From Psychromonas sp. psych-6C06 (GTDB lineage Bacteria > Pseudomonadota > Gammaproteobacteria > Enterobacterales > Psychromonadaceae), in the NCBI RefSeq assembly GCF_002835465.1, contig NZ_PIZM01000006.1, positions 1 to 64,000 of the forward strand: 64,000 nucleotides of DNA, read 5' to 3'. The notes below the pieces were generated by a model. It was not told the DNA's origin, made no database searches, and saw only the letters and a list, made by a program, of their open reading frames with translations. The position numbers and the translations under genes were made by a program. Shown one piece after another: positions 209 through 35,022 of this stretch. How positions within the stretch are numbered: position 1 is the stretch's first letter; the number at the start of each line of letters is the position of its first letter.

Positions 209-327
209 TGTTTGGCGACAATAGCGCTGTGGTCCCACCTGATTCCATTCCGAACTCAGTAGTGAAACGCAGTTGCGCCGATGGTAGTGTGGGGTCTCCC
301 CATGTGAGAGTAGGTCATCGCCAAACG
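209..327 (+). rRNA. rrf: 5S rRNA, copy 1
   Basis: About 119 nt matching the gammaproteobacterial 5S pattern, including the GGTCCCACCTGA and CCGAACTCAG segments and the GGTAGTGTGGGGTCTCCCCATG arm (given here only in outline). The ends are set by helix I, where GTTTGGCGA at 210-218 pairs with TCGCCAAAC at 318-326. A strong terminator hairpin follows at once. Confidence 0.95.
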
Positions 328-340
328 CCTAATTTAAAAT

Positions 341-375
341 AACCCCACTGGTTAATTCCGGTGGGGTTTATTTAA
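341..375 (+). terminator. Rho-independent terminator after first 5S
   Basis: An 11 bp stem (AACCCCACTGG / CCGGTGGGGTT, one G-U pair, 6-nt loop) is followed by TTTATTT. It sits 14 nt after the first 5S. A second perfect hairpin (AGTGGTT / AACCACT) lies at 380-399. A terminator here would limit transcription of the second 5S and the tRNA, unless it is partial or those genes have their own promoter. Confidence 0.75.
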
Positions 376-433
376 TTCTAGTGGTTGCAAATAACCACTA
401 TGAAAATTTATAATAATAATTATTTTTAGATTT

Positions 434-552
434 TTTCTGACAACAATAGCGCTGTGGTCCCACCTGATTCCATTCCGAACTCAGTAGTGAAACGCAGTTG
501 CGCCGATGGTAGTGTGGGGTCTCCCCATGTGAGAGTAGGTCATTGTCAGATC
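434..552 (+). rRNA. rrf: 5S rRNA, copy 2
   Basis: The internal part of this gene is identical to the first 5S, but helix I differs. CTGACAA (437-443) pairs with TTGTCAG (543-549), so three base pairs have changed on both sides together relative to copy 1. Paired changes of this kind point to a functional RNA rather than a decayed duplicate. It lies 7 nt upstream of tRNA-Thr. Confidence 0.93.
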
Positions 553-559
553 CCCTTTT

Positions 560-635
560 GCTGATATGGCTCAGTTGGTAGAGCGCACCCTTGGTAAGGG
601 TGAGGTCGGCGGTTCAAATCCGCCTATCAGCACCA
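560..635 (+). tRNA. thrT: tRNA-Thr (GGT)
   Basis: A 76-nt cloverleaf. The acceptor stem GCTGATA (560-566) pairs with TATCAGC (625-631), followed by discriminator A and an encoded CCA. The anticodon stem-loop CACCCTTGGTAAGGGTG gives anticodon GGT, and the T arm carries GGTTCAAATCC. Placement after 5S resembles the distal threonine tRNA of some enterobacterial rRNA operons. It is likely co-transcribed with the second 5S. Confidence 0.97.
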
Positions 636-714: not shown

Positions 715-1650
715 ATGACTCAAAAAACGATTCGTATTGCAACAAGACACAGCCCTCTTGCTATGTGGCAAGCCAACTTTGTTAAATCTGAACTATTAAA
801 ATTTCATCCTGATCTAAATGTTGAATTACTTCCTATGAAAACCAAAGGGGATATTATTTTAGATACACCACTGGCTAAAGTCGGTGGTAAAGGTTTATTT
901 GTAAAAGAGCTTGAAGTGGCAATGTTGGAGGGGCGTGCTGACATTGCAGTTCATTCAATGAAAGATGTTCCTGTCGATTTTCCTGAAGGTTTGGGGCTCA
1001 CTGTTATCTGTGAGCGTGAAGACCCTCGTGATGCTTTTGTATCTAATCAATATATGAATATATCAGAGTTACCTAATGGCGCTATTGTTGGTACATCTAG
1101 TTTACGTCGTCAATGTCAGCTTCGTGAACTAAGGCCTGATCTGATTATTAAAGATTTACGTGGAAACGTTAATACTCGCTTACGTAAACTGGACGATGGT
1201 GAATATGATGCCATTATCTTGGCAGCGGCTGGTTTAATACGTCTTGAAATGTATTCGCGTATTGCTAGTTATATAGAACCTGAGATGAGTCTACCAGCGG
1301 TTGGCCAAGGAGCTGTAGGTATTGAGTGTCGATTGGACGACGAAGAGACTATTGCTTTATTACAGCCTTTAGAACATCAGCAAACACGCCAACGTGTGAC
1401 AGCTGAGCGTGCAATGAATCTCGCACTGCAGGGGGGATGTCAGGTGCCTATTGGCAGCTATTCTATTTTTAAAGGTGATCAGCTCTTTCTTCGCGGTCTA
1501 GTAGGCAGTGTTGATGGTAAAAAGATCATTCGTAAAGAGATAATAGGTCAACCAGAGCAAGCTGAGCAAATGGGGCTGACACTTGCAAAGCAACTCTTAG
1601 ACTGCGGTGCGAAAGAAATATTATCTGAAGTTTATAATATTAATGGTTAA
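715..1650 (+). CDS. hemC: Hydroxymethylbilane synthase (porphobilinogen deaminase)
   Basis: This cytosolic enzyme joins four porphobilinogen molecules into hydroxymethylbilane in tetrapyrrole (heme, siroheme) synthesis. The 311 aa length is normal for the family. The N-terminal [15 protein letters not shown] substrate-binding stretch, [11 protein letters not shown], and the dipyrromethane cofactor cysteine C242 within GGCQVPIG are all visible. The ATG follows an AAGAG ribosome-binding site. It is the first gene of hemCDXY and overlaps hemD by 8 bp. Siroheme made from this pathway is also needed by the NirB encoded downstream in this window. Confidence 0.97.
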
Positions 1651-8215: not shown

Positions 8216-10564
8216 ATGTTGTTGCTGTTAAGCATATTGGCCCTTTTTCTAGGGCCTATTACCTACCGTTTATTAAAGCGTCAACCGGGGTGGTTTGACC
8301 TGATGGACGCATTTATTTTTGTAACTATTTCTGGCCTAGTGTTATTTCACATACTGCCAGAGGTATTACATAGCGGTGGACCGATTGTTCTCCTTTTGAT
8401 GGCTATTGGTTTACTTGCGCCAAGTTGGATAGAGAAGTATTTTCATAAAGCCGCAGACCAAGCGCATCAAACAACACTTTTTCTTGGTGTCATCGGCCTT
8501 GTTGTTCATGCAGCGGTAGATGGCTCTGCACTAGTGGTCGAGCCAGGTGATCATACCGCTTGGTTATTAGCACTGGGTGTTTTATTACACCGTTTCCCTG
8601 TTGGTTTGACTATTTGGTGGTTATTACGTCCACAATATGGACGAACGTTACCGCTAGTTGTGCTTATTTCGATGTCTGCAGCGACGGTTGCCGGAGCGCT
8701 ATTTGCCGATCATTCCATTGCACATTTAGACGGAGAGCTACTCGCATGGTTCCAAGCGTTTGTAATGGGCTCTATCATGCATGTTGTATTACATCGTCCT
8801 TACCTAAAATCAGGTAAACATTCGCATTCTCATGGGCATAGCCATGAAACAGATAAAGAGAGTGAGTCTAGCGAAAACCGTTACGCAGCAGGCATTGGTA
8901 GTGTGTTGGGGGTTGTGGTTTTGGCTGCCGTGTTGTTGCCCCATTGGCTAGGTTATGTTGAGCATAACCATGATCATGGCGTAGCGCATGAAGTTCATGA
9001 GTCTCACGCCCATGATGAGCATGCGCATGAATCACATGGGCACGACCATGATAAACATGAAGCCGATGCACATGAATCACATGGGCACGATCATGATGAA
9101 CATGAAGCCGACGAGCATGCGCATGAATCACATGGGCACGATCATGATGAACATGAAGCCGACGAGCATGCGCATGAATCACATGGACACGACCATGATA
9201 AACATGAAGCTGATGTGCATGAATCACATGAGCACGACCATGATGTACATGAAACCGAGAAGCATGAATCACATGGGCACGACCATGATGAACATGAAGC
9301 TGATGCGCATGAATCACATGGACACGACCATGATGAACATGAAGCTGATGTGCATGAATCACATGAGCACGACCATGATGTACATGAAACCGAGAAGCAT
9401 GAATCACATGGGCACGACCATGATGAACATGAAGCCGACGAGCATGCGCACGAATCACATGGGCACGGCCATGAAGAACATGAAGCCGATAACCATGAAG
9501 GACATGATCATGGTGCAGAAGAACAATTTAGTTCACAAACGGCACAAGCGTTAATTAATGTCAGTAAAATTGCACTGTATAGTGCTCCTATGCTGTTATT
9601 CGCATATTTTTTAAGTGCGTTAATGCATTACTTTAAACCTAAATTTTCTATTATGCCGATGCAAGGCAGTCAAGCTTTCCTTAAAGACAGCTTAAAAGGT
9701 GTCGCTTATGGTTTACCGTTACCTGTGTGTTCACCAAGTGCGAGTAAAATGCATCAACAGCTATTAGGATTAGGGGCAAACCAAACCTTTGCAACTGCCT
9801 TTCTAATTGCAACACCTATTTTGGGTTTCGATGCATTGCTTATCTCATTGCCTTTATTAGGTGAACAGATGTTATTGTTGCGCCTTGCACTAGCGATTAT
9901 TTTTGCAGTAGCTGTTGCTTGGTTACTAGGGCGTCACTTTAAAACACCAATCTCTTCAATTGCTGCACATAGTTGCCAAGGTGGTCAACCCTCGTCGCGA
10001 TTTATTAGTGCGATAAAACAAGGGTATCAACACCAACTTGATCATACCGCTCCATGGGTTTTATTAGGCTGGGCGGTCGCAGCGACACTCTCTACGCTAC
10101 CTGCATGGTCATTTTTCGATCAGGCATTATGGTTACAAGTATTAGTGATGATTGTTATTGCTTTCCCATTTGCGCTCTGTGCAACGGGTATTACGCCAGT
10201 GATCGCCATTTTATTAATGGCGGGACTCTCACCGGGCGCTGCAATTGCCTTCTTTTTGATCGCGCCAACTATTAGCCTTGAGCTACTTAAGACACTTAAA
10301 AAGCAACAGGGCTTCTTTGCTGCCATGAGTTTGGCGCTATTGATGACAGTCGGTGCTTTCCTAACGGGCTTATTACTGAATCAATTTATCGAAGTCTTCT
10401 CACCTTCATGGATTGAGCATAGCATTGCAGATTACAGTCTCTGGCAAATGATCAGTTTAGCGATTATTTTAGTACTATATTTCAGCTCACTATTACGTCG
10501 TGGTGCACGTAGCTTTATTGCTGAATTAGTTCCTAAAAGCTTTTTAAAACCTCATCAACATTAG
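8216..10564 (+). CDS. Fused metal transporter: ZIP-like domain, His-rich loop, DUF318-type permease
   Basis: 782 aa. Residues 1-245 form a multi-span domain with ZIP-like motifs: HxLPE (H45-E49), HAAVDG (H98-G103) and HRFPVG (H125-G130). About residues 249-435 form a repetitive loop of His, Asp and Glu that should bind divalent metals. The rest is a second membrane domain with GLPLPVCSPSA and ATGITPVIAILLMAGLSPG, resembling the DUF318/ArsP-like permeases that include the SO_0444 Cu/Zn exporter. The usual CSC pair is CSP here. Which metal it carries and in which direction cannot be told. It follows the arsenic genes but has its own 86 bp upstream gap. Confidence 0.72.
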   Translation: MLLLLSILALFLGPITYRLLKRQPGWFDLMDAFIFVTISGLVLFHILPEVLHSGGPIVLLLMAIGLLAPSWIEKYFHKAADQAHQTTLFLGVIGLVVHAAVDGSALVVEPGDHTAWLLALGVLLHRFPVGLTIWWLLRPQYGRTLPLVVLISMSAATVAGALFADHSIAHLDGELLAWFQAFVMGSIMHVVLHRPYLKSGKHSHSHGHSHETDKESESSENRYAAGIGSVLGVVVLAAVLLPHWLGYVEHNHDHGVAHEVHESHAHDEHAHESHGHDHDKHEADAHESHGHDHDEHEADEHAHESHGHDHDEHEADEHAHESHGHDHDKHEADVHESHEHDHDVHETEKHESHGHDHDEHEADAHESHGHDHDEHEADVHESHEHDHDVHETEKHESHGHDHDEHEADEHAHESHGHGHEEHEADNHEGHDHGAEEQFSSQTAQALINVSKIALYSAPMLLFAYFLSALMHYFKPKFSIMPMQGSQAFLKDSLKGVAYGLPLPVCSPSASKMHQQLLGLGANQTFATAFLIATPILGFDALLISLPLLGEQMLLLRLALAIIFAVAVAWLLGRHFKTPISSIAAHSCQGGQPSSRFISAIKQGYQHQLDHTAPWVLLGWAVAATLSTLPAWSFFDQALWLQVLVMIVIAFPFALCATGITPVIAILLMAGLSPGAAIAFFLIAPTISLELLKTLKKQQGFFAAMSLALLMTVGAFLTGLLLNQFIEVFSPSWIEHSIADYSLWQMISLAIILVLYFSSLLRRGARSFIAELVPKSFLKPHQH
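8995..9500 (+). repeat. Coding tandem repeats (His/Asp/Glu-rich loop)
   Basis: Imperfect direct repeats of about 42-51 nt built on CATGAATCACATGGGCACGA followed by CATGATGAACATGAAGC. At least nine units can be seen, and some stretches (for example around 9220-9290 and 9345-9415) are near-identical at longer range. All stay in frame, so copy number can change without breaking the gene. The repeats also produce long open frames on the other strand and in other frames, which are not genes. Confidence 0.9.
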
Positions 10565-28089: not shown

Positions 28090-29165
28090 AACATATATGC
28101 TTTTCGATAACAGCACACGGGTTTGGGCATGGTGCGATATCTTGCTCTGTGATTAATTGCTTAATGGCGCAATATCCCCATATAAAAATATCAGTAATGA
28201 CGCTTTTACCCAAAGCTTATCTTGATTCTCGTTTGGCTGGCGAATTTGATTATTATCCAATGGGATCTGATTTTGGTATGTTAATGGCCACACCGATTGA
28301 GATAGATATTGAAAATAGCCGCCAAAAATATCAAACTTTGTATGAAAATTGGCAATCTTACGTCGAGACTGAAAAAGACCAATTAGCTACGATGAAAGCA
28401 GATATGCTAATTAGTAATATCTCACCAATTAGTTTAGATGCAGCGCATCAATTGGGCATCCAAACTGCCTCTGTAGCGCCGTTTAATTGGGCGCAAATTT
28501 ATCAAGCTTATTGTTTAAATGAAGAGCGAGCTACTCAAGCAGTCTATCGCAAAATGATGTCGGTCTATGAAAAAGTTGATCAAGTCTTTAAACCTTTGCC
28601 TTTTGTTCCTTTAGGTGATGGAAAAGAGATTGAAATTGCGAGTATTAATGACCAGCCTGTGGCACAAATGGATGTGCTACTTTCCAAATTACCAAAGAGT
28701 GTTAAAAAGATAGGCTTGCTTGCATTAGGGGGCTTACCTTTTCCACTGGACCTAGCGCAATGGCCTGAAATTGAGAGCTTGCATTGGTTAGTTGATCAAA
28801 CGCCACCTTCAGCGCGTGCAGATATGACGCAAATTGGTCAATTAAACCTTCCTTTTCTAAGCCTTATTGCTTGTAGTGATTTGATTATTACTAAACCGGG
28901 TTATGGCACTTATTGTGAAATAGCTGCATTAGCTAAATATAAAAAAGTACGCGTGCTTAGCCTACAACGACCAGATTGGCCTGAGACACCTTATTTGAAG
29001 CGTTTTTTATCGCGCAGAGTACCTTTTGTTGAAGTTAGCCAATCGCAGTTAAAGGGAGAATCTTTAAGGCAGGTGATCATTGAAATTAATCAGGTCGAAT
29101 ACCCTGATGAGATGAGCTGTCAGAGTGGCGCACAGCAATTAGTAAAGGCATTATCGATACTTTAA
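28086..29165 (+). CDS. GT-B fold glycosyltransferase-like protein
   Basis: 359 aa of the MurG/UDP-glycosyltransferase or epimerase superfamily. The N-terminal ITAHGFGHGAISCSVINCL is the nucleotide-sugar protein pattern also seen in arabinokinase-like enzymes. The C-terminal half shows DLIITKPGYGTYCEIAAL, where the KPGYGT segment marks the donor-binding site. The donor and acceptor are unknown. It overlaps the oxidoreductase gene by 4 bp. Confidence 0.75.
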   Translation: MKHICFSITAHGFGHGAISCSVINCLMAQYPHIKISVMTLLPKAYLDSRLAGEFDYYPMGSDFGMLMATPIEIDIENSRQKYQTLYENWQSYVETEKDQLATMKADMLISNISPISLDAAHQLGIQTASVAPFNWAQIYQAYCLNEERATQAVYRKMMSVYEKVDQVFKPLPFVPLGDGKEIEIASINDQPVAQMDVLLSKLPKSVKKIGLLALGGLPFPLDLAQWPEIESLHWLVDQTPPSARADMTQIGQLNLPFLSLIACSDLIITKPGYGTYCEIAALAKYKKVRVLSLQRPDWPETPYLKRFLSRRVPFVEVSQSQLKGESLRQVIIEINQVEYPDEMSCQSGAQQLVKALSIL

Positions 29166-29297
29166 TAATGAGCCTGCCTCCACAATAATTTAAAAACTGA
29201 GAAAATATTATTAGGCAATGTAAATTTTTAAGCTATATTTATTTTGTCACATACATCTAATCTTTTATTACTTGCATTCAGATGTTTATATATTGTA

Positions 29298-29392
29298 GCT
29301 AGAAAAAGGCAAGTTAAGGGAAACCTTAATACGCAAAGCCACCGGCCTGTCGACAACTGTCTATGGTAGCGGAGTTACCGAGGCGATACATA
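29298..29392 (+). ncRNA. Class I cyclic-di-GMP riboswitch (GEMM-I)
   Basis: The aptamer has the class I hallmarks. P2 is a GTTAAG / CTTAAT stem with a GGGAAACC-type GNRA loop, preceded by AAGGCAA. The conserved ACGCAAAGCCACCGGCCT block follows (29331-29348). P3 ends in GGTAGCGGAGTTACC (29365-29379). The arrangement is the same as in the Vibrio aptamers. It lies 75 bp upstream of the FN3 protein's start and is on its strand. The exact P1 ends are estimated. Confidence 0.93.
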
Positions 29393-29400
29393 TTGTTATA

Positions 29401-29466
29401 TCCCTCCATATTTCAAAGATAATGCAATGTCAATAAACGCTGAATGATCATTTTTGTGGAGGCAAA
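29401..29466 (+). promoter_or_regulatory. Possible expression platform and RBS of the riboswitch
   Basis: CCTCCA at 29403-29408 is complementary to TGGAGG (29457-29462), the ribosome-binding site of the next gene. Pairing would hide that site, and the aptamer next to it could control this. No terminator hairpin with a T run was found in the leader, which favours control of translation. The direction of the c-di-GMP effect cannot be told. Confidence 0.5.
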
Positions 29467-30882
29467 ATGAATCAGCTATTTACCTATTCTAAAACCTATT
29501 ACTTTACGTTGTTTATATATCTATTTTTTAGCCCTGTGGTTGCTGCAGAAAGCTTGCTAGTTAGCTGGGTAGACAACTCTAATGAAGATGTGTTTTTTGT
29601 TGAAAAGCGCCAGCCGGGTGATGCGAGTTTTCAGCGTGTCGCGATCCTTTCTGAAAACACTAATAGTTATACTGATATAGATGTAATTATCGATAAAACA
29701 TATTGTTATCGAATTATTGCATTTAATCAGGCTGGGCAAAGTATTTCAGATGAAGTCTGCCAAGAAGTACAGGGCGTCGTTTCCTCACCTATACCACCTA
29801 CTTCGCCTACATCACCAACTTTACCCATACATCCAGATCTTGTAGATCCTTCTGGAAATATGGTGGTATCACACCAATTTATACCGAGACCTATCAATAT
29901 TGAAATAGCTGAAAAGAAACTATATTCCTTTAAAAGTGATGAGTTATATAATGATCGGTATAGTGAAGATGATATTTTTAATGTTGATTTTTATGTAAAT
30001 GAGGGGAATCTTTATCGAATTGATCGTGAGGATTTTAGCTTTCAGCAAGACGGGGTAGAGTTAGATAATGGATATGCAAGCATGGTCTTCGACACAAGCA
30101 ATAGTTTATCTTTTGTTTTGCAAGCAAGTGGAGATTTACAGGTTGCAACATTATATATGCGAGCAGGTGTTTGGAGTCATGAGGAGTCAAGTATTCTGGT
30201 TACAGTGGGTGATACAATTGAAAAAATAACTTTACCAAGCGGTTATGGGTGGCATTACATCATGGTGGATATTGAATTTGATGGTACAGCTCCTGTTACC
30301 ATTACCACTGATAGTGATAGAGCTGTATATAGCTCTGTTATGTTTGCAGGCTTGGTAATCAATAACAAGCCTAGTGCTCCTCAATATGCAGCTATGGTAG
30401 ATATCGATACTAATGTTGATTATAAAATTGATGTTAGCAATGTGAAATTCATGGTTTCTAATGGTGAAATAGGTAATGAAGGTGCTTCTGATGTGAGTAT
30501 TACTTCGCTAGGTTATTATGGAAAAACAATGGTTTATGATAGCCCTTATGAATTTGTTAGTGCTAACGGAGGTGATTACTCAGGCTATAGATATATGGGC
30601 TGGAAAGAATCGAATGGCGTAGATATAAAATTGCAGAGTGCAGAGTCTCAGGTTAATACTACATCACTGTACTTTAAAGTTGGCGTCTGGAGTCATGAGG
30701 CAACATTTATTGAGCTGACTATCAATGGAGTAAACGAGTTAATTGAAGTCCCTAGTGGGTACCGTTGGTATTATATGAAAATAGAGGTTGAGTTTGAAGG
30801 GGAACTTGAACTTGATTTGCATCCTTACGGGGAAAGAGGGGGGTACAGTGCGCTAGGATTCGTTGGCCTTACATTTGAGTAA
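29467..30882 (+). CDS. Secreted FN3 protein with a duplicated GVWSHE domain
   Basis: 471 aa. A signal peptide (about 1-27, cleaving after VVAA) leads into an FN3-like domain (about 28-105) with a cysteine pair (C80, C98). A Pro/Thr/Ser linker (PTSPTSPTLP) follows. The rest is two copies of an unknown domain of about 150 residues. Each has GVWSHE (224-229 and 396-401), then, 23 residues after its start, PSGYxW (247-252 and 419-424). No membrane anchor or PEP-CTERM motif. It is preceded by a c-di-GMP riboswitch and ended by a terminator, so it is probably a single gene. A matrix or surface role is inferred. Confidence 0.85.
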   Translation: MNQLFTYSKTYYFTLFIYLFFSPVVAAESLLVSWVDNSNEDVFFVEKRQPGDASFQRVAILSENTNSYTDIDVIIDKTYCYRIIAFNQAGQSISDEVCQEVQGVVSSPIPPTSPTSPTLPIHPDLVDPSGNMVVSHQFIPRPINIEIAEKKLYSFKSDELYNDRYSEDDIFNVDFYVNEGNLYRIDREDFSFQQDGVELDNGYASMVFDTSNSLSFVLQASGDLQVATLYMRAGVWSHEESSILVTVGDTIEKITLPSGYGWHYIMVDIEFDGTAPVTITTDSDRAVYSSVMFAGLVINNKPSAPQYAAMVDIDTNVDYKIDVSNVKFMVSNGEIGNEGASDVSITSLGYYGKTMVYDSPYEFVSANGGDYSGYRYMGWKESNGVDIKLQSAESQVNTTSLYFKVGVWSHEATFIELTINGVNELIEVPSGYRWYYMKIEVEFEGELELDLHPYGERGGYSALGFVGLTFE

Positions 30883-30894
30883 CAAACAGTAAGT

Positions 30895-30930
30895 AAAAAG
30901 CCGAAGAGTTTATCTTCGGCTTTTGCGTTT
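30895..30930. terminator. Bidirectional terminator between the FN3 and PEP-CTERM genes
   Basis: AAAAGCCGAAGA pairs with TCTTCGGCTTTT around a four-base loop. It is nearly perfect, with T tracts in both directions, between two convergent genes. Confidence 0.88.
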
Positions 30931-30944
30931 TTAGCTCAATTTTA

Positions 30945-31511
30945 TTAAGCTTGTTTTTTACGACGAGCAGCACCAAAGCCAACTAATGCAAGACCTAGTA
31001 ATGCAATTGTTGCTGGAGCAGGTACTGCAGAAGCTGCAAAGATAAATTCGCCTGGCGCACCAAATTGATTTGCAGAGAACTTCATCATACCTGATGTATC
31101 AGCAAATAGGCCTGAAACTGACTTTAAAACACCATTTGCAATGAAGTCATTTAATAGACCATCTTTATCTGCATCATTGTGCGTGATGTTAGTTAATGTA
31201 AAGGTGAAATCACCTGCAGCCCAAAATTCAGCACCACCATTTACAGTTGGCACTGAATTGTTGATAACGATATCGTTAAATGTAGCTGCTGAGCCAATTG
31301 CAACCGATTGAAAGTCAATCGTTGTAGCTGCAACAGTTACTGGGTTAAAAGACACGCTTTCAAGTGCAGTTTCTGCTGCGTTGTAGTCAGCTTGTGCAAA
31401 ACCAAAAAATGCAATTTCACCTTGAATTGTGTCCAAAGTGGTTGCGAAAGTTGATGATGACGCTACTAAAAGTGTTGCGCATGCAACAAGCTTTAAAAAT
31501 ACGTTTTTCAT
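30945..31511 (-). CDS. PEP-CTERM sorting-domain protein
   Basis: 188 aa. It has a signal peptide (MKNVFLKLVACATLLVASSSTFA) and a C-terminal sorting signal: VPAPATIALLGLALVGFGAA then RRKKQA, about residues 162-188. That is the PEP motif (VPAP), a hydrophobic stretch and a basic tail, the signal handled by exosortases such as the XrtA encoded at the other end of this locus. The mature part is rich in small and beta-branched residues and has no enzyme motif. It is likely a matrix or surface protein. A sigma-54 promoter lies upstream. Confidence 0.92.
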   Translation of the reverse strand: MKNVFLKLVACATLLVASSSTFATTLDTIQGEIAFFGFAQADYNAAETALESVSFNPVTVAATTIDFQSVAIGSAATFNDIVINNSVPTVNGGAEFWAAGDFTFTLTNITHNDADKDGLLNDFIANGVLKSVSGLFADTSGMMKFSANQFGAPGEFIFAASAVPAPATIALLGLALVGFGAARRKKQA

Positions 31512-31594
31512 GTTAATCCTTATTAAGTGTTCGTCCCTTATTGGGCTTGTTATTAAATAGTGAAGCTCAAATTAATATGAACTTATTTGTACAT

Positions 31595-31612
31595 AAGCAT
31601 TTTTCATGCCAA
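31595..31612 (-). promoter_or_regulatory. Sigma-54 promoter of the PEP-CTERM gene
   Basis: On the minus strand TTGGCATGAAAAATGCTT fits the -24/-12 consensus (TGGCACG-N4-TTGCW). GG and GC are separated by exactly 10 bases. It lies about 85-100 bp upstream of the PEP-CTERM gene start, leaving room for a leader. The locus also encodes a sigma-54-dependent activator, PrsR, so the two fit together. Confidence 0.75.
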
Positions 31613-31808
31613 AAATAAAGCTTATGTTTATCAATGGGTTATTTACTTAGTTGTACCCGGTGTGTAAATAAAACTGACATGGGTAAGTTTGAAATAGATA
31701 AACAGACTTAAATCAAAGTTAATGAATCTGGGGTGATAGATTGATTGAATAAGTAACAAGCTACGCTTACAATTGGTTTCTTTGATATTTTTTATAGATG
31801 GAGTTTGA

Positions 31809-32264
31809 ATGCAATTTTCTTCTGCAGTTAAGGTAGTGACACCCGCTGTTTTTTTATCAGTTCTTTTATCTGCCTGTGGCTCCTCTAGCTCAGAAGACTT
31901 AAGTGTTATTAATAATATTCTTGAACAAGATAATGTGCTCGTTGCAGAAGAAATTGTAAAAGAGATCGCTAATAATACGGAGTCAATTATTGTTACCCCA
32001 CCTTTGGAAAGCAACGGTGAAGTAGATTTTTCAAATGTCCAAATTGAATGGCTTGATAATTCAGATAATGAAGATGCTTTTATTGTTGTTCGGAAAAATA
32101 TTCGACATACTCATTTTGACCAAGTCGAAGTATTACCCAAAGATACGATAAGTTATACAGATACAGGTGTTATTGTTGGTGAATCGTATTGTTATAAGGT
32201 GGTTGCGGTTAATGCAGGTGGGCAAGCTAACTCTGAAGAGTCTTGTTTAGAAGTGACTTATTAA
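31809..32264 (+). CDS. FN3-domain lipoprotein
   Basis: 151 aa. A lipoprotein signal (VTPAVFLSVLLSACGSSSS; lipobox LSAC) is followed by an acidic stretch and one FN3-like domain, about 75-150. This domain is clearly related to that of the 471 aa protein just upstream. Compare IEWLDNSDNEDAF with VSWVDNSNEDVFF, and SYCYKVVAVNAGGQ with TYCYRIIAFNQAGQ, including the Cys pair. It is likely anchored in the outer membrane. It converges with prsT. Confidence 0.8.
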   Translation: MQFSSAVKVVTPAVFLSVLLSACGSSSSEDLSVINNILEQDNVLVAEEIVKEIANNTESIIVTPPLESNGEVDFSNVQIEWLDNSDNEDAFIVVRKNIRHTHFDQVEVLPKDTISYTDTGVIVGESYCYKVVAVNAGGQANSEESCLEVTY

Positions 32265-32281
32265 GTACTAAGTCCTAATGT

Positions 32282-32335
32282 ATTATCAACATTATCAACA
32301 TTATCAACATTATCAACATTATCAACATTATCATT
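32282..32335. repeat. Tandem 9-mer repeat
   Basis: ATTATCAAC occurs five times in perfect tandem (32282-32326), followed by a degenerate unit ATTATCATT. It lies between the FN3 lipoprotein stop and the prsT terminator hairpin. It is a simple slippage repeat in non-coding DNA, with no sign of CRISPR spacers. Confidence 0.9.
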
Positions 32336-32339
32336 TCTG

Positions 32340-32375
32340 AATAAACTAAGCGCCGGTAAGGGCGGTTAGTTTATT
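32340..32375. terminator. Long hairpin terminator between convergent genes
   Basis: AATAAACTAAGCGCC pairs with GGCGGTTAGTTTATT around GGTAAG-like loop bases, with a single G-G mismatch. The stem of about 15 bp is strong. T tracts are short on both sides. It separates the lipoprotein gene and prsT. Confidence 0.75.
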
Positions 32376-32391
32376 CATGCTTAACGTTTTC

Positions 32392-35022
32392 TTACAAATC
32401 CTTCACTTCAAGCCAATGATCTTTTATTTCGGTATTATCTGGGGCTAATGTATAAGCACGTCGTAGCTCTTTTTGGGCTTCTTTTAATTTGCCTTGCTTA
32501 TATAATATCCAGCCATAGGTATCTGCAATCGGGCCGTTATTAGGAGCTTGTTGTGACGCTCTTCGTGCTAGCTCTTCAGCACGACTTGCATCTACATTAA
32601 GATATAACCATGCTGCGTTATTGAGGCTAGTCAGCTCATTAGGTTGTTGTTCTAATACTTTTTCATACAATATTAACGCTTGTTTGTGGTCACCTGCAGC
32701 TTGAGCTACTAATGCTTGATTAATGCTAGCAGCTAGGCTTCCGGGGCTTTGCGCTTGCCATTGCGTTAAAAATTGAGATGCACGTTGTTCACTCTCTCGT
32801 TTGAGGGTCGCATAGAGTTTTTGTGCGACTTGATCATTGCGGCCTGATTTCCATTTATTCTCAAGTAGTTGTATTGCTTTTGCATTATCTTTTTGCATAA
32901 TCGCAATGTCTGCAAGATAAATGGTGGTAATCGGGTTGTTAGGCAGAATCGCTTCTACCTGTTGAATCACTTTTTGGGCTTCGTTGAGCTGTCCTGCATC
33001 AATCTCAATTCTTGCTAATAATACTAAAAATGTTGCTTGCTCGGGTGCGCTTTTAAGTTCATTTAAAGCCAAGGTTCTCGCTTGGATATAGTCCTTTGCT
33101 TGTAGTGCGGAGTATGCTCGCTGATAATTAATTTTCTGTCTAAGCTGATTAAAATAGGTGATGAGCTTGCCATCTACGCCTTGTTTTGCATCCTCTAGAT
33201 GGACAATTGCCTGTGTTATATTTTGTGCTTGGAATTGTGCATCAGCAAGTACCAGTGCTAAGGTTGAAGCGTGGTGGTTACTCGGTAACATCTGTTGAAC
33301 CTGTTCAATATCTTGATTGAGTTGTATCTGGTTAAATACAACTCCTTGGTAGGCCCTTAATTCTTCTGGGTGAAAAAGAATTGCTTGGCGATAAACTTGC
33401 TGTGCCTCGGACCAGCTTTCTGTTTGTTGTTTACTCTGAGCAAGGCCATATAGGGCGACTAAATTATCCTCTTCCTGGGCTAACACGCTGTTAAATAACT
33501 GCGCTGCCTGTGGATACTGTTGGCGGTATAGTGTGTATTTTGCAACGAGAAGTTGAGTATCGATAGGGCTAACATCCATACTCTTAAGTTGTTGGATATA
33601 TGAATCTGCTTCTGACTCTCTTTTTAATAAGATTAATTTCTGCAGATAAGCCGTTTGTAGGTGAATGTTTTCAGGGTTTTTCGTTAATGCTTTTTTTAAT
33701 GTAGCGAGTGCTTTTTCATGTTGCGCAGGTTTTTTTTGGCTATCATAGTTTGCTGAAAGAAGTGCGTATTTGTCGCTATTAGGAAATAGCTTCCCGATTC
33801 TCTTTAAGGCCATTTCTGCTTTTTCGAACTGCTGCTGATTAATTGCTGCAAGATGATAAAGGGTTAAGGTTTCATAACTATCTTCTACGCTAATTGTATT
33901 GTCGAGCATGAGCAATACATCGGATGCATTATCTAATTTTAGCTGTGTCATAGCATAAAGTTGAGTTAACTTGTCAGAGTCCTTCTCTGGATCAACAATA
34001 CCGTTAAGATACTGTTGAGCACCTTTTAGATCACCTTCTGCATAAAGTATTACACCATATAAGGTGAGTGCTTTTTTGTTACCAGGTGCAACTTTTAAGA
34101 TGCTATCTAACGTTTGTTTTGCGAGTGTAAACTCTTTATTCTGATATTGTTTGGTTGCTTCAATAATATTTTGGTTAATGGAAGCCGCTTCTGGAAATTC
34201 ATCCGCTAAAATACGTGAATAAAGTAATGCTTCTGAGCTTCTACCCTGCATCGTTAACACTTCTGTCAGCGCTTGTAAGATATTAATTCTTTCTGGTGTG
34301 AAAATATCAGAAGAAGGAATCACTGCTAACGCTTCAGAAAGTGTTTTTTCAGCTTGCGGTAAGTCATTATTATTAATCTGTAAATAACTCTTAAGGATCA
34401 GCGCTTCACTATTTTTACTGTTGTTCTCTATCGCATTATTTAACAGGGCGATGGCTCCCTGTGGGTCATTGGAAAGTGCACTAACGCGAGCTAATCCAAC
34501 TAATGCATCACTTTGATAAGCATCGGTACTTTGTAACTGATTGAAAAGTTTAGCGGCTTTATCTATCTGCTTATCACGTAATAAGAATTTTGCTTGCTCA
34601 AGTTTTAGACGGTTAGGTTGTTGTTGCAAAATATCTGCATAAGTCTCTATGACGCTATTGGCAGAAAATAGCTTATTGTCTTTATTGTATGACTCTAATA
34701 GTAAAAAGTAGTAGTCAGCATTTTTTTCATTTTGATAGTTTTTTAACACGTAGCTTGATGCTTCGGGCTGTCCCAGTTGCAGGTATATTTGAGCGAGGAT
34801 AAGATAGCCATCAATCTGATCTGGGTAAGTCGTAATCGCATTTTTAGCGGCTACCATCGCGGCTTTAAACTGATGTTGCTCTAAGTAAGTTGTTCCCTGC
34901 TGAGTATATTGACTCAATGAAGCTGTCGGAGCCTCAGTGGGTTCGCTACACGCGGAAAGCAATAAGGTTGTTGCCATTAATATTGCTGTGACTGTTTTTT
35001 TCTTAGTAAATTGTAGCGTCAT
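32392..35022 (-). CDS. prsT: PrsT: PEP-CTERM/XrtA system TPR lipoprotein
   Basis: 876 aa. A lipoprotein signal (MATTLLLSACSEPT; lipobox LLSAC) precedes TPR repeats over almost the whole length, for example LILAQIYLQLGQPEASSYVL and TYGWILYKQGKLKEAQKEL. This size and architecture match the PEP-CTERM-system TPR lipoprotein family that accompanies XrtA loci. Likely held in the outer membrane as an assembly scaffold, though its role is not proven. It is the last gene of the minus-strand run, 48 bp after prsR. Confidence 0.9.
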   Translation of the reverse strand: MTLQFTKKKTVTAILMATTLLLSACSEPTEAPTASLSQYTQQGTTYLEQHQFKAAMVAAKNAITTYPDQIDGYLILAQIYLQLGQPEASSYVLKNYQNEKNADYYFLLLESYNKDNKLFSANSVIETYADILQQQPNRLKLEQAKFLLRDKQIDKAAKLFNQLQSTDAYQSDALVGLARVSALSNDPQGAIALLNNAIENNSKNSEALILKSYLQINNNDLPQAEKTLSEALAVIPSSDIFTPERINILQALTEVLTMQGRSSEALLYSRILADEFPEAASINQNIIEATKQYQNKEFTLAKQTLDSILKVAPGNKKALTLYGVILYAEGDLKGAQQYLNGIVDPEKDSDKLTQLYAMTQLKLDNASDVLLMLDNTISVEDSYETLTLYHLAAINQQQFEKAEMALKRIGKLFPNSDKYALLSANYDSQKKPAQHEKALATLKKALTKNPENIHLQTAYLQKLILLKRESEADSYIQQLKSMDVSPIDTQLLVAKYTLYRQQYPQAAQLFNSVLAQEEDNLVALYGLAQSKQQTESWSEAQQVYRQAILFHPEELRAYQGVVFNQIQLNQDIEQVQQMLPSNHHASTLALVLADAQFQAQNITQAIVHLEDAKQGVDGKLITYFNQLRQKINYQRAYSALQAKDYIQARTLALNELKSAPEQATFLVLLARIEIDAGQLNEAQKVIQQVEAILPNNPITTIYLADIAIMQKDNAKAIQLLENKWKSGRNDQVAQKLYATLKRESEQRASQFLTQWQAQSPGSLAASINQALVAQAAGDHKQALILYEKVLEQQPNELTSLNNAAWLYLNVDASRAEELARRASQQAPNNGPIADTYGWILYKQGKLKEAQKELRRAYTLAPDNTEIKDHWLEVKDL

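What the first reader, a model, noticed from the sequence alone, without database searches (positions are those of the whole stretch)
29298..29466. c-di-GMP riboswitch controls a secreted matrix-type protein beside the XrtA locus
A textbook class I aptamer lies upstream of a signal-peptide FN3 protein. High c-di-GMP promotes biofilm in many bacteria, so this places a matrix protein under that signal at the edge of the EPS/PEP-CTERM cluster. The protein family is not one I recognise.
Basis: partly seen in the sequence, partly recalled or inferred. Interest (0 to 1): 0.7.

Follow-up and report, generated by a model that had tools for sequence, protein, structure and literature searches.

The report
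c-di-GMP riboswitch before secreted sugar-binding-like protein
A real cyclic-di-GMP sensor sits in the messenger RNA of a secreted, probably polysaccharide-binding protein in the marine genus Psychromonas; the sensor-gene pair is conserved in several species, and the RNA looks more like an off-switch than an on-switch.

Summary
Observation confirmed. Window 29298-29382 is a class I c-di-GMP aptamer (RF01051, 70 bits, cut-off 35), the only one found in this 3.72-Mb assembly. It ends 84 nt before a 471-aa signal-peptide protein. Ten of 24 Psychromonas genomes have it 74-84 nt before the orthologue; six have another before a smaller FN3 paralogue. The full-length family was found only in Psychromonas (16 of 24), in the same 16 genomes that have an exosortase over cut-off. 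The protein is FN3 plus two carbohydrate-module-like beta-sandwiches without a PEP-CTERM tag. The leader has no terminator-like site. It holds an anti-Shine-Dalgarno, a hairpin carrying the Shine-Dalgarno and AUG, and a covarying long-range helix around the aptamer (best of 120 re-pairings). P1 excludes the helix that hides the anti-Shine-Dalgarno, so I predict a translational OFF switch, like published Vc2. Direction is only moderately supported: the nested model hardly changes for the window's own leader. The place beside XrtA is shared only with P. hadalis among ten carriers. Known kind, undescribed target.

The parts
29274..29295 (+). 5' strand of long-range helix H1
   Evidence: pairs with 29425-29446; strands fit their own partner best of 120 group re-pairings over 16 leaders; coordinates
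29294..29299 (+). 5' strand of aptamer stem P1 (UGUA-GC), overlapping the inner end of H1
   Evidence: read from sequence and constrained folding
29298..29382 (+). class I c-di-GMP aptamer (RF01051); base equated with Vc2 G20 is G29308
   Evidence: 70 bits, cut-off 35; base at model position 11
29380..29388 (+). 5' strand of the anti-P1 hairpin (GAGG.GAUA)
   Evidence: pairs with 29399-29406; GAGG/CCUC core in 16 of 16 leaders, as AAGG/CCUU in two; covariation test weak, 25 of 120
29383..29390 (+). 3' strand of P1, overlapping the anti-P1 hairpin
29399..29409 (+). 3' strand of anti-P1 (29399-29406) and anti-Shine-Dalgarno CCUCCAU (29403-29409)
   Evidence: duplex with the Shine-Dalgarno -12.5 kcal/mol; 8 of 300 shuffles as good for this leader
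29425..29446 (+). 3' strand of long-range helix H1
29446..29473 (+). hairpin with the Shine-Dalgarno GUGGAGG (29456-29462) around its loop and the AUG in its 3' arm
   Evidence: arms fit own partner, 4 of 120 re-pairings as good; folds
29467..30882 (+). secreted 471-aa protein: signal peptide, FN3 (about 29548-29796), repeat 1 (29842-30366), repeat 2 (30403-30879)
   Evidence: orthologues with the same leader in 9 other genomes
30896..30924 (+). terminator-like hairpin after the gene, between it and the convergent PEP-CTERM gene
   Evidence: 12 pairs, T-rich tail (a pattern match, 3 found where shuffles give 1.7)
30945..31511 (-). neighbouring PEP-CTERM protein, convergent
   Evidence: PF07589 25.9 bits, cut-off 20.7; TIGR02595 26.3, cut-off 16
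31809..32264 (+). small FN3 lipoprotein, paralogue of the FN3 part; no aptamer before it in this genome
   Evidence: 41% identity over residues 29-116 of the large protein; no RF01051 match at E up to 10 in 31500-31830

Best explanation
This is a class I c-di-GMP riboswitch that controls translation of one secreted protein. When c-di-GMP is low, the two strands of aptamer stem P1 are taken up by alternative helices: the 5' strand by long-range helix H1, the 3' strand by an anti-P1 hairpin (GAGG.GAUA with UAUC.CCUC) that also buries the anti-Shine-Dalgarno. The Shine-Dalgarno stays in a hairpin loop and the mRNA can be translated. When c-di-GMP binds during transcription, P1 forms and shortens H1; CCUCCA is freed to pair with the Shine-Dalgarno and the AUG hairpin can close, so translation falls (OFF switch). 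The protein (FN3 plus two carbohydrate-module-like sandwiches) is probably an extracellular polysaccharide-binding protein tied to the exosortase/exopolysaccharide system and made when c-di-GMP is low. Shown by computation: the aptamer, its conserved linkage to the gene, the covarying H1, no terminator-like site in the leader, a confident model of repeat 2. Inferred: ligand binding, translational control, OFF direction, kinetic control, polysaccharide binding.
For: Aptamer. Linkage kept in 10 genomes and a related leader before a paralogue in 6. Leader comparison over 16 sequences: H1 own partner -13.28 against -9.47 kcal/mol, best of 120 re-pairings, at most 8 of 300 shuffles as good in 11 of 16; SD hairpin 4 of 120. 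Anti-SD:SD duplex -10.7 kcal/mol or better in 7 of 16, and at most 10 of 300 shuffles as good in 6 of these 7. With the aptamer fold imposed, expected anti-SD:SD pairs at 37 C go from 0.00 to 0.40 (window, L001), 0.00 to 1.27 (L008), 0.00 to 0.62 (L002), 0.00 to 2.55 (L003), 0.05 to 5.43 (L005); AUG exposure falls in L005, L007, L008, L009, L017, L019. No terminator-like site between aptamer and gene. Vc2 is described as a translational OFF switch in which P1 is decisive (PMC9262584, passages). Repeat 2 modelled at pLDDT 89 and matched to carbohydrate-module-like sandwiches.
Against: For the window's own leader the nested model hardly changes: SD exposure 0.79 to 0.73 at 37 C and 0.77 to 0.77 at 10 C; AUG 0.05 to 0.07. 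In L018 the AUG becomes more exposed (0.15 to 0.35); at 10 C SD exposure rises in L002 (0.41 to 0.80), L003 (0.49 to 0.67) and L011 (0.68 to 0.73). Anti-SD:SD is weak in the other 9 leaders and its re-pairing test is flat (58 of 120); anti-P1 is 25 of 120. H1 is not better than shuffles in L005, L006, L018, L010, L015 (71, 17, 28, 15, 75 of 300). The loss of anti-P1 on binding follows from the imposed P1. The imposed bound form lies 7.3-16.3 kcal/mol above the free ensemble at 37 C (14.0 in the window), and already 7.8 at 12 nt past the aptamer, so equilibrium switching looks unlikely. In V. cholerae the Vc1 switch is ON (PMC4744006, passages). Polysaccharide binding rests on fold only.
Confidence: 0.5

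Rival explanations
1. Same riboswitch, opposite sense: c-di-GMP raises translation (ON), placing a matrix protein in the high c-di-GMP state.
For: Putative matrix or adhesive proteins are often raised by c-di-GMP: Vc1-gbpA is positively regulated (PMC4744006, passages) and Bc2 is an ON switch for a collagen adhesion protein (PMC6366702, first part read). At 10 C SD exposure rises with the imposed bound fold in L002, L003 and L011.
Against: At 37 C SD exposure rises by no more than 0.01 in any of 16 leaders and falls clearly in L003, L005 and L008; the anti-SD is released, not hidden, by P1.
Confidence: 0.27
2. The aptamer acts on mRNA stability, Rho termination or an upstream RNA rather than on ribosome access.
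For: There is precedent: a paper titled as showing that Vc2 acts through RNA stability of an upstream putative sRNA (title seen in a reference list only), and Vc1 has no apparent terminator or anti-SD (PMC4744006, passages).
Against: Conserved Shine-Dalgarno/AUG hairpin (4 of 120 re-pairings) and an anti-Shine-Dalgarno in 7 of 16 leaders.
Confidence: 0.14
3. The ligand is another cyclic dinucleotide such as cGAMP.
For: Three of 16 related leaders (L007, L010, L011) have A at the position equated with Vc2 G20; G20A class I aptamers bind 3',3'-cGAMP (PMC6274999, passages).
Against: The window aptamer has G there, and the genome has 51 GGDEF matches.
Confidence: 0.04
4. The aptamer is a decayed relic or a chance match with no function.
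For: Two orthologues of the same clade have no aptamer (L062, L063), so the gene can do without it.
Against: 70 bits over all 87 positions; kept in 10 of the 12 signal-peptide orthologues with a conserved leader.
Confidence: 0.03

Closest known systems
Vc2 class I c-di-GMP riboswitch of Vibrio cholerae (before tfoY)
   Same: Same aptamer class; described as a translational OFF switch in which P1 is decisive and control is assumed kinetic (PMC9262584, passages)
   Different: Different downstream gene; the leader compared here has an enclosing covarying helix H1 and a hairpin with Shine-Dalgarno and AUG; I did not align Vc2 itself
Vc1 class I riboswitch before gbpA of Vibrio cholerae
   Same: Same aptamer class, before a secreted carbohydrate-associated surface protein
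   Different: Vc1 is ON and has no apparent terminator or anti-Shine-Dalgarno (PMC4744006, passages)
XrtA/PEP-CTERM exopolysaccharide system
   Same: Family present in the same 16 of 24 genomes as exosortase over cut-off; membrane-anchored-looking paralogues within about 14-30 kb of it in 5 genomes
   Different: The protein has no PEP-CTERM tag, and the aptamer-bearing gene lies beside the locus only here and in P. hadalis among 10
CBM35/CBM36-type carbohydrate-binding modules and the sandwich domain of family 2 carbohydrate esterases
   Different: Low identity (CBM35/36 rows 8-14%), no Pfam family; sugar binding untested
cGAMP-type GEMM-Ib riboswitches (Geobacter)
   Same: Same RF01051 family; three related Psychromonas leaders have A at the position equated with G20
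   Different: The window aptamer has G

Membership tests
c-di-GMP-I riboswitch (RF01051) | Covariance-model score over the curated cut-off | tested here: met
   70 bits, cut-off 35, all 87 positions
c-di-GMP-I riboswitch (RF01051) | GAAA tetraloop of P2 and pocket bases equivalent to Vc2 G20, A47, C92 | tested here: met
   GAAA loop and conserved pocket letters in the alignment; position 11 is G; Vc2 numbering partly recalled, consistent with PMC7288161 passage
c-di-GMP-I riboswitch (RF01051) | Place in the 5' leader of a gene, conserved across species | tested here: met
   74-84 nt before the orthologue in 10 genomes
c-di-GMP-I riboswitch (RF01051) | Binds c-di-GMP and changes expression | not testable with these tools
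   needs in-line probing and reporters
Translational OFF riboswitch of the Vc2 kind | P1 exclusive with a structure that exposes the ribosome site | tested here: inconclusive
   exclusive helices present, but predicted change of the ribosome site is small in the window leader and mixed at 10 C
Transcription-terminating class I switch | Intrinsic terminator between aptamer and gene | tested here: not met
   no terminator-like site in 29383-29466
cGAMP-type GEMM-Ib riboswitch | A in place of Vc2 G20 | tested here: not met
   G in the window; A in L007, L010, L011
PEP-CTERM exosortase substrate (471-aa protein) | C-terminal PEP-CTERM sorting domain | tested here: not met
   0 families in Pfam at E up to 10 and in NCBIfam at E up to 0.01
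Fibronectin type III domain | Sequence profile match | tested here: met
   family profile to titin FN3 E 2.4e-13; fn3 in 9 of 12 members at E up to 1, none in the window protein itself
CBM35/CBM36 carbohydrate-binding module | Fold plus sequence relation and sugar-binding site | tested here: inconclusive

The most novel reading that the evidence does not exclude
In Psychromonas a duplicated leader-gene cassette (large and small FN3 secreted proteins) carries a translational expression platform in which a covarying helix encloses the whole aptamer and ends at the ribosome site. It represses polysaccharide-binding proteins when c-di-GMP is high, opposite to the usual matrix logic; and in two sister species, and in one copy of a third, the same switch has changed its specificity base (G20 to A) and may answer to cGAMP instead.
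Probability: 0.3. Interest if true: 0.6.

Novelty: new member of a known kind. Interest (0 to 1): 0.42.

Why it matters
It would put an undescribed secreted protein family, one that shares its distribution with exosortase across the genus, under direct RNA control by c-di-GMP. The predicted sense (repression) would place a putative matrix or surface protein in the low c-di-GMP state, which is easy to test with a reporter. The G-to-A change at the specificity base in related leaders offers a natural test of ligand switching within one regulon.

Tried and rejected
Transcription attenuation: rejected for this leader, since the scan found no terminator-like site between aptamer and gene; by contrast the tandem pilus-linked aptamers L020 and L022-L026 are followed by a hairpin and a T-run (read from the sequences printed, not scanned).

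A remnant aptamer before the small FN3 gene of the window: no RF01051 match at E up to 10 in 31500-31830. Aptamers in 17 further family or FN3 loci, including L037/L039 and the order-level FN3 proteins L103-L106: none at E up to 0.1; none in L062/L063 at E up to 1.

Folding energy alone of 29298-29490: z -1.09, 31 of 200 shuffles as stable, so it shows nothing; the case rests on comparison.

Promoter: 8 sigma-70-like sites in 29100-32400 where shuffles give 13.4, so no transcription start is claimed.

Full-length structure model: pLDDT 66, too weak; its Foldseek list was not used for claims. Repeat 2 alone gave 89 (10 rows, one of them repeat 1 of the window). Its matches include sandwich domains of insect toxins, phloem lectin and others; I read these as a shared common fold, not a function.

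Helix tests that did not help: anti-P1 25 of 120 and anti-SD 58 of 120 re-pairings as good. The five leader groups used in that test were set by me, and one of them holds a single sequence.

Papers: PEP-CTERM with c-di-GMP (15 papers, listing only); c-di-GMP riboswitch with Shine-Dalgarno (21, listing only); Psychromonas with riboswitch and exopolysaccharide or c-di-GMP (1 paper, the same in both, passages read; it names Psychromonas only in a phylogenetic survey); exosortase, PEP-CTERM and FN3 (1 paper, listing). None of these listings pointed to a description of this system; only the open library was searched.

Full report
1. The aptamer. RF01051 (c-di-GMP-I) matches window 29298-29382 on the plus strand over its whole length, 70 bits against a gathering score of 35. 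It is the only match in the own assembly of 3.72 Mb (150 of 258 first-look candidates scored). The assembly has 51 GGDEF-domain matches, so c-di-GMP is very likely made (inference). The base at model position 11 is G. I equate it with G20 of Vc2; the numbering is partly recalled and agrees with the contact list in PMC7288161 (passage).

2. The linkage is conserved. The organism belongs to Psychromonas, by the record titles of its relatives; P. hadalis is the nearest named one (protein 63% identical). Of 24 genomes of the genus, 13 have RF01051, 26 sites in all (at most 117 candidates scored per genome). Ten of the 26 sites end 74-84 nt before the start codon of the orthologue of the 471-aa protein, six end 85-88 nt before a smaller FN3 protein, and ten stand elsewhere (L004, L012, L013, L020-L026). 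On a tree of 18 family members the label 'has aptamer' needs 2 changes (shuffled mean 6.2; 1 of 500 shuffles as low). The simplest story is one origin in the clade of 12 signal-peptide proteins and one loss in the pair G021/G013 (loci L062, L063), whose exact place has support 89/95 only. That pair keeps the adjacent 633-aa gene seen beside the orthologue in L059 and L060 (the L059 copy is a chemotaxis receptor), but has no aptamer. None of the six other full-length members, which look membrane-anchored (read from sequence), has an RF01051 match.

4. Link to the exosortase system. Exosortase (TIGR02602) is over its cut-off in exactly the 16 genomes that have a full-length family member. In the other 8 there is one short sub-threshold match (G019, 21.5 bits, with stops). 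Fisher p is 1.4e-6, or 4.9e-5 with only the 5 negatives that are at least 90% complete; kinship of the genomes is not corrected for. The membrane-anchored-looking paralogues lie about 14-30 kb from the exosortase in 5 of 6 cases; the sixth is on another contig. The aptamer-bearing gene is beside the XrtA locus in the window and in P. hadalis, where 11 of 11 ORFs of the 13.4-kb locus match the window. In the other 8 of 10 it is either on another contig (5 genomes; their named loci show no XrtA-locus gene within the stretch held) or 0.22-1.51 Mb away on the same contig (3 genomes).

5. The expression platform. No terminator-like site lies in the leader. Sixteen leaders (10 large-gene, 6 small-gene) were compared; the other 10 aptamer sites were left out because they precede other genes or contig ends. 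(a) H1, a long-range helix between the start of the leader and the stretch before the Shine-Dalgarno hairpin: own partners -13.28 against a mean of -9.47 kcal/mol over 120 re-pairings of five groups, own pairing the best; at most 8 of 300 shuffles as good in 11 of 16 leaders, but 71, 17, 28, 15 and 75 in L005, L006, L018, L010 and L015. (b) The anti-P1 hairpin: core GAGG/CCUC in 16 of 16, as AAGG/CCUU in L010 and L011; 25 of 120 re-pairings as good. (c) An anti-Shine-Dalgarno with a duplex of -10.7 kcal/mol or better in 7 of 16; 58 of 120. (d) A hairpin around the Shine-Dalgarno with the AUG in its arm; 4 of 120. P1 shares bases with (b) and with the inner end of (a), so they exclude each other.

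6. Direction. I imposed the aptamer fold with P1 and compared ensembles. At 37 C expected anti-SD:SD pairs rise in L001 (0.00 to 0.40), L008 (0.00 to 1.27), L002 (0.00 to 0.62), L003 (0.00 to 2.55) and L005 (0.05 to 5.43), are near saturation in L006 and L018 in both states, and stay at or below 0.06 in the other 9. AUG exposure falls in L005, L007, L008, L009, L017 and L019. Against this: the window's own Shine-Dalgarno exposure hardly moves (0.79 to 0.73; 0.77 to 0.77 at 10 C), L018's AUG becomes more exposed, and at 10 C Shine-Dalgarno exposure rises in L002, L003 and L011. The model cannot hold the pseudoknot of anti-SD with the hairpin loop, nor tertiary contacts or ligand. The imposed form costs 14.0 kcal/mol in the window leader (7.3-16.3 over the 16), so control would have to be kinetic, as assumed for Vc2 (PMC9262584, passages). 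I hold OFF somewhat over one half and ON at about 0.27. Published class I switches go both ways (PMC6366702, first part and passages; PMC4744006, passages).

7. What it is. A genuine, conserved riboswitch of a known kind with an undescribed target family. The points that seem new are the regulon of two paralogous FN3 proteins in the genus, the helix enclosing the aptamer, the shared distribution with exosortase, the likely repressive sense, and the A at the specificity base in three of 16 leaders (G20A class I aptamers bind cGAMP, PMC6274999, passages).

Noticed in passing
L010, L011, L007 (aptamer at 1501 onward): Three related aptamers have A at the position equated with Vc2 G20, which may shift the ligand to cGAMP. 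In two genomes (G005, G012) all four aptamers have A or C there.
   Followed up: partly
L020, L022-L026: In G005 and G012 class I aptamers occur as clusters near a fimbrial chaperone-like gene (two or three within about 1 kb), each followed by a hairpin and T-run that looks like a terminator.
   Followed up: partly
L013 (aptamer 1501-1579, minus strand): A class I aptamer in another Psychromonas genome stands 31 nt before an RTX-repeat protein.
   Followed up: no
L061:1990-4640: In Psychromonas sp. MB-3u-54 a GGDEF gene and a GGDEF-EAL gene lie upstream of the aptamer-bearing gene.
   Followed up: no
L059:3274-5175, L060:3290-5191, L062:3681-5582, L063:2565-4562: A 633-665-aa gene (chemotaxis receptor in L059) stands next to the orthologue in four species, with or without the aptamer.
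   Followed up: partly
window 211-632: Two 5S rRNA genes in tandem followed by a tRNA gene at the start of the window.
   Followed up: no
window 8216-10564: A long membrane-protein ORF with a His/Asp/Glu-rich repeated stretch.
   Followed up: no
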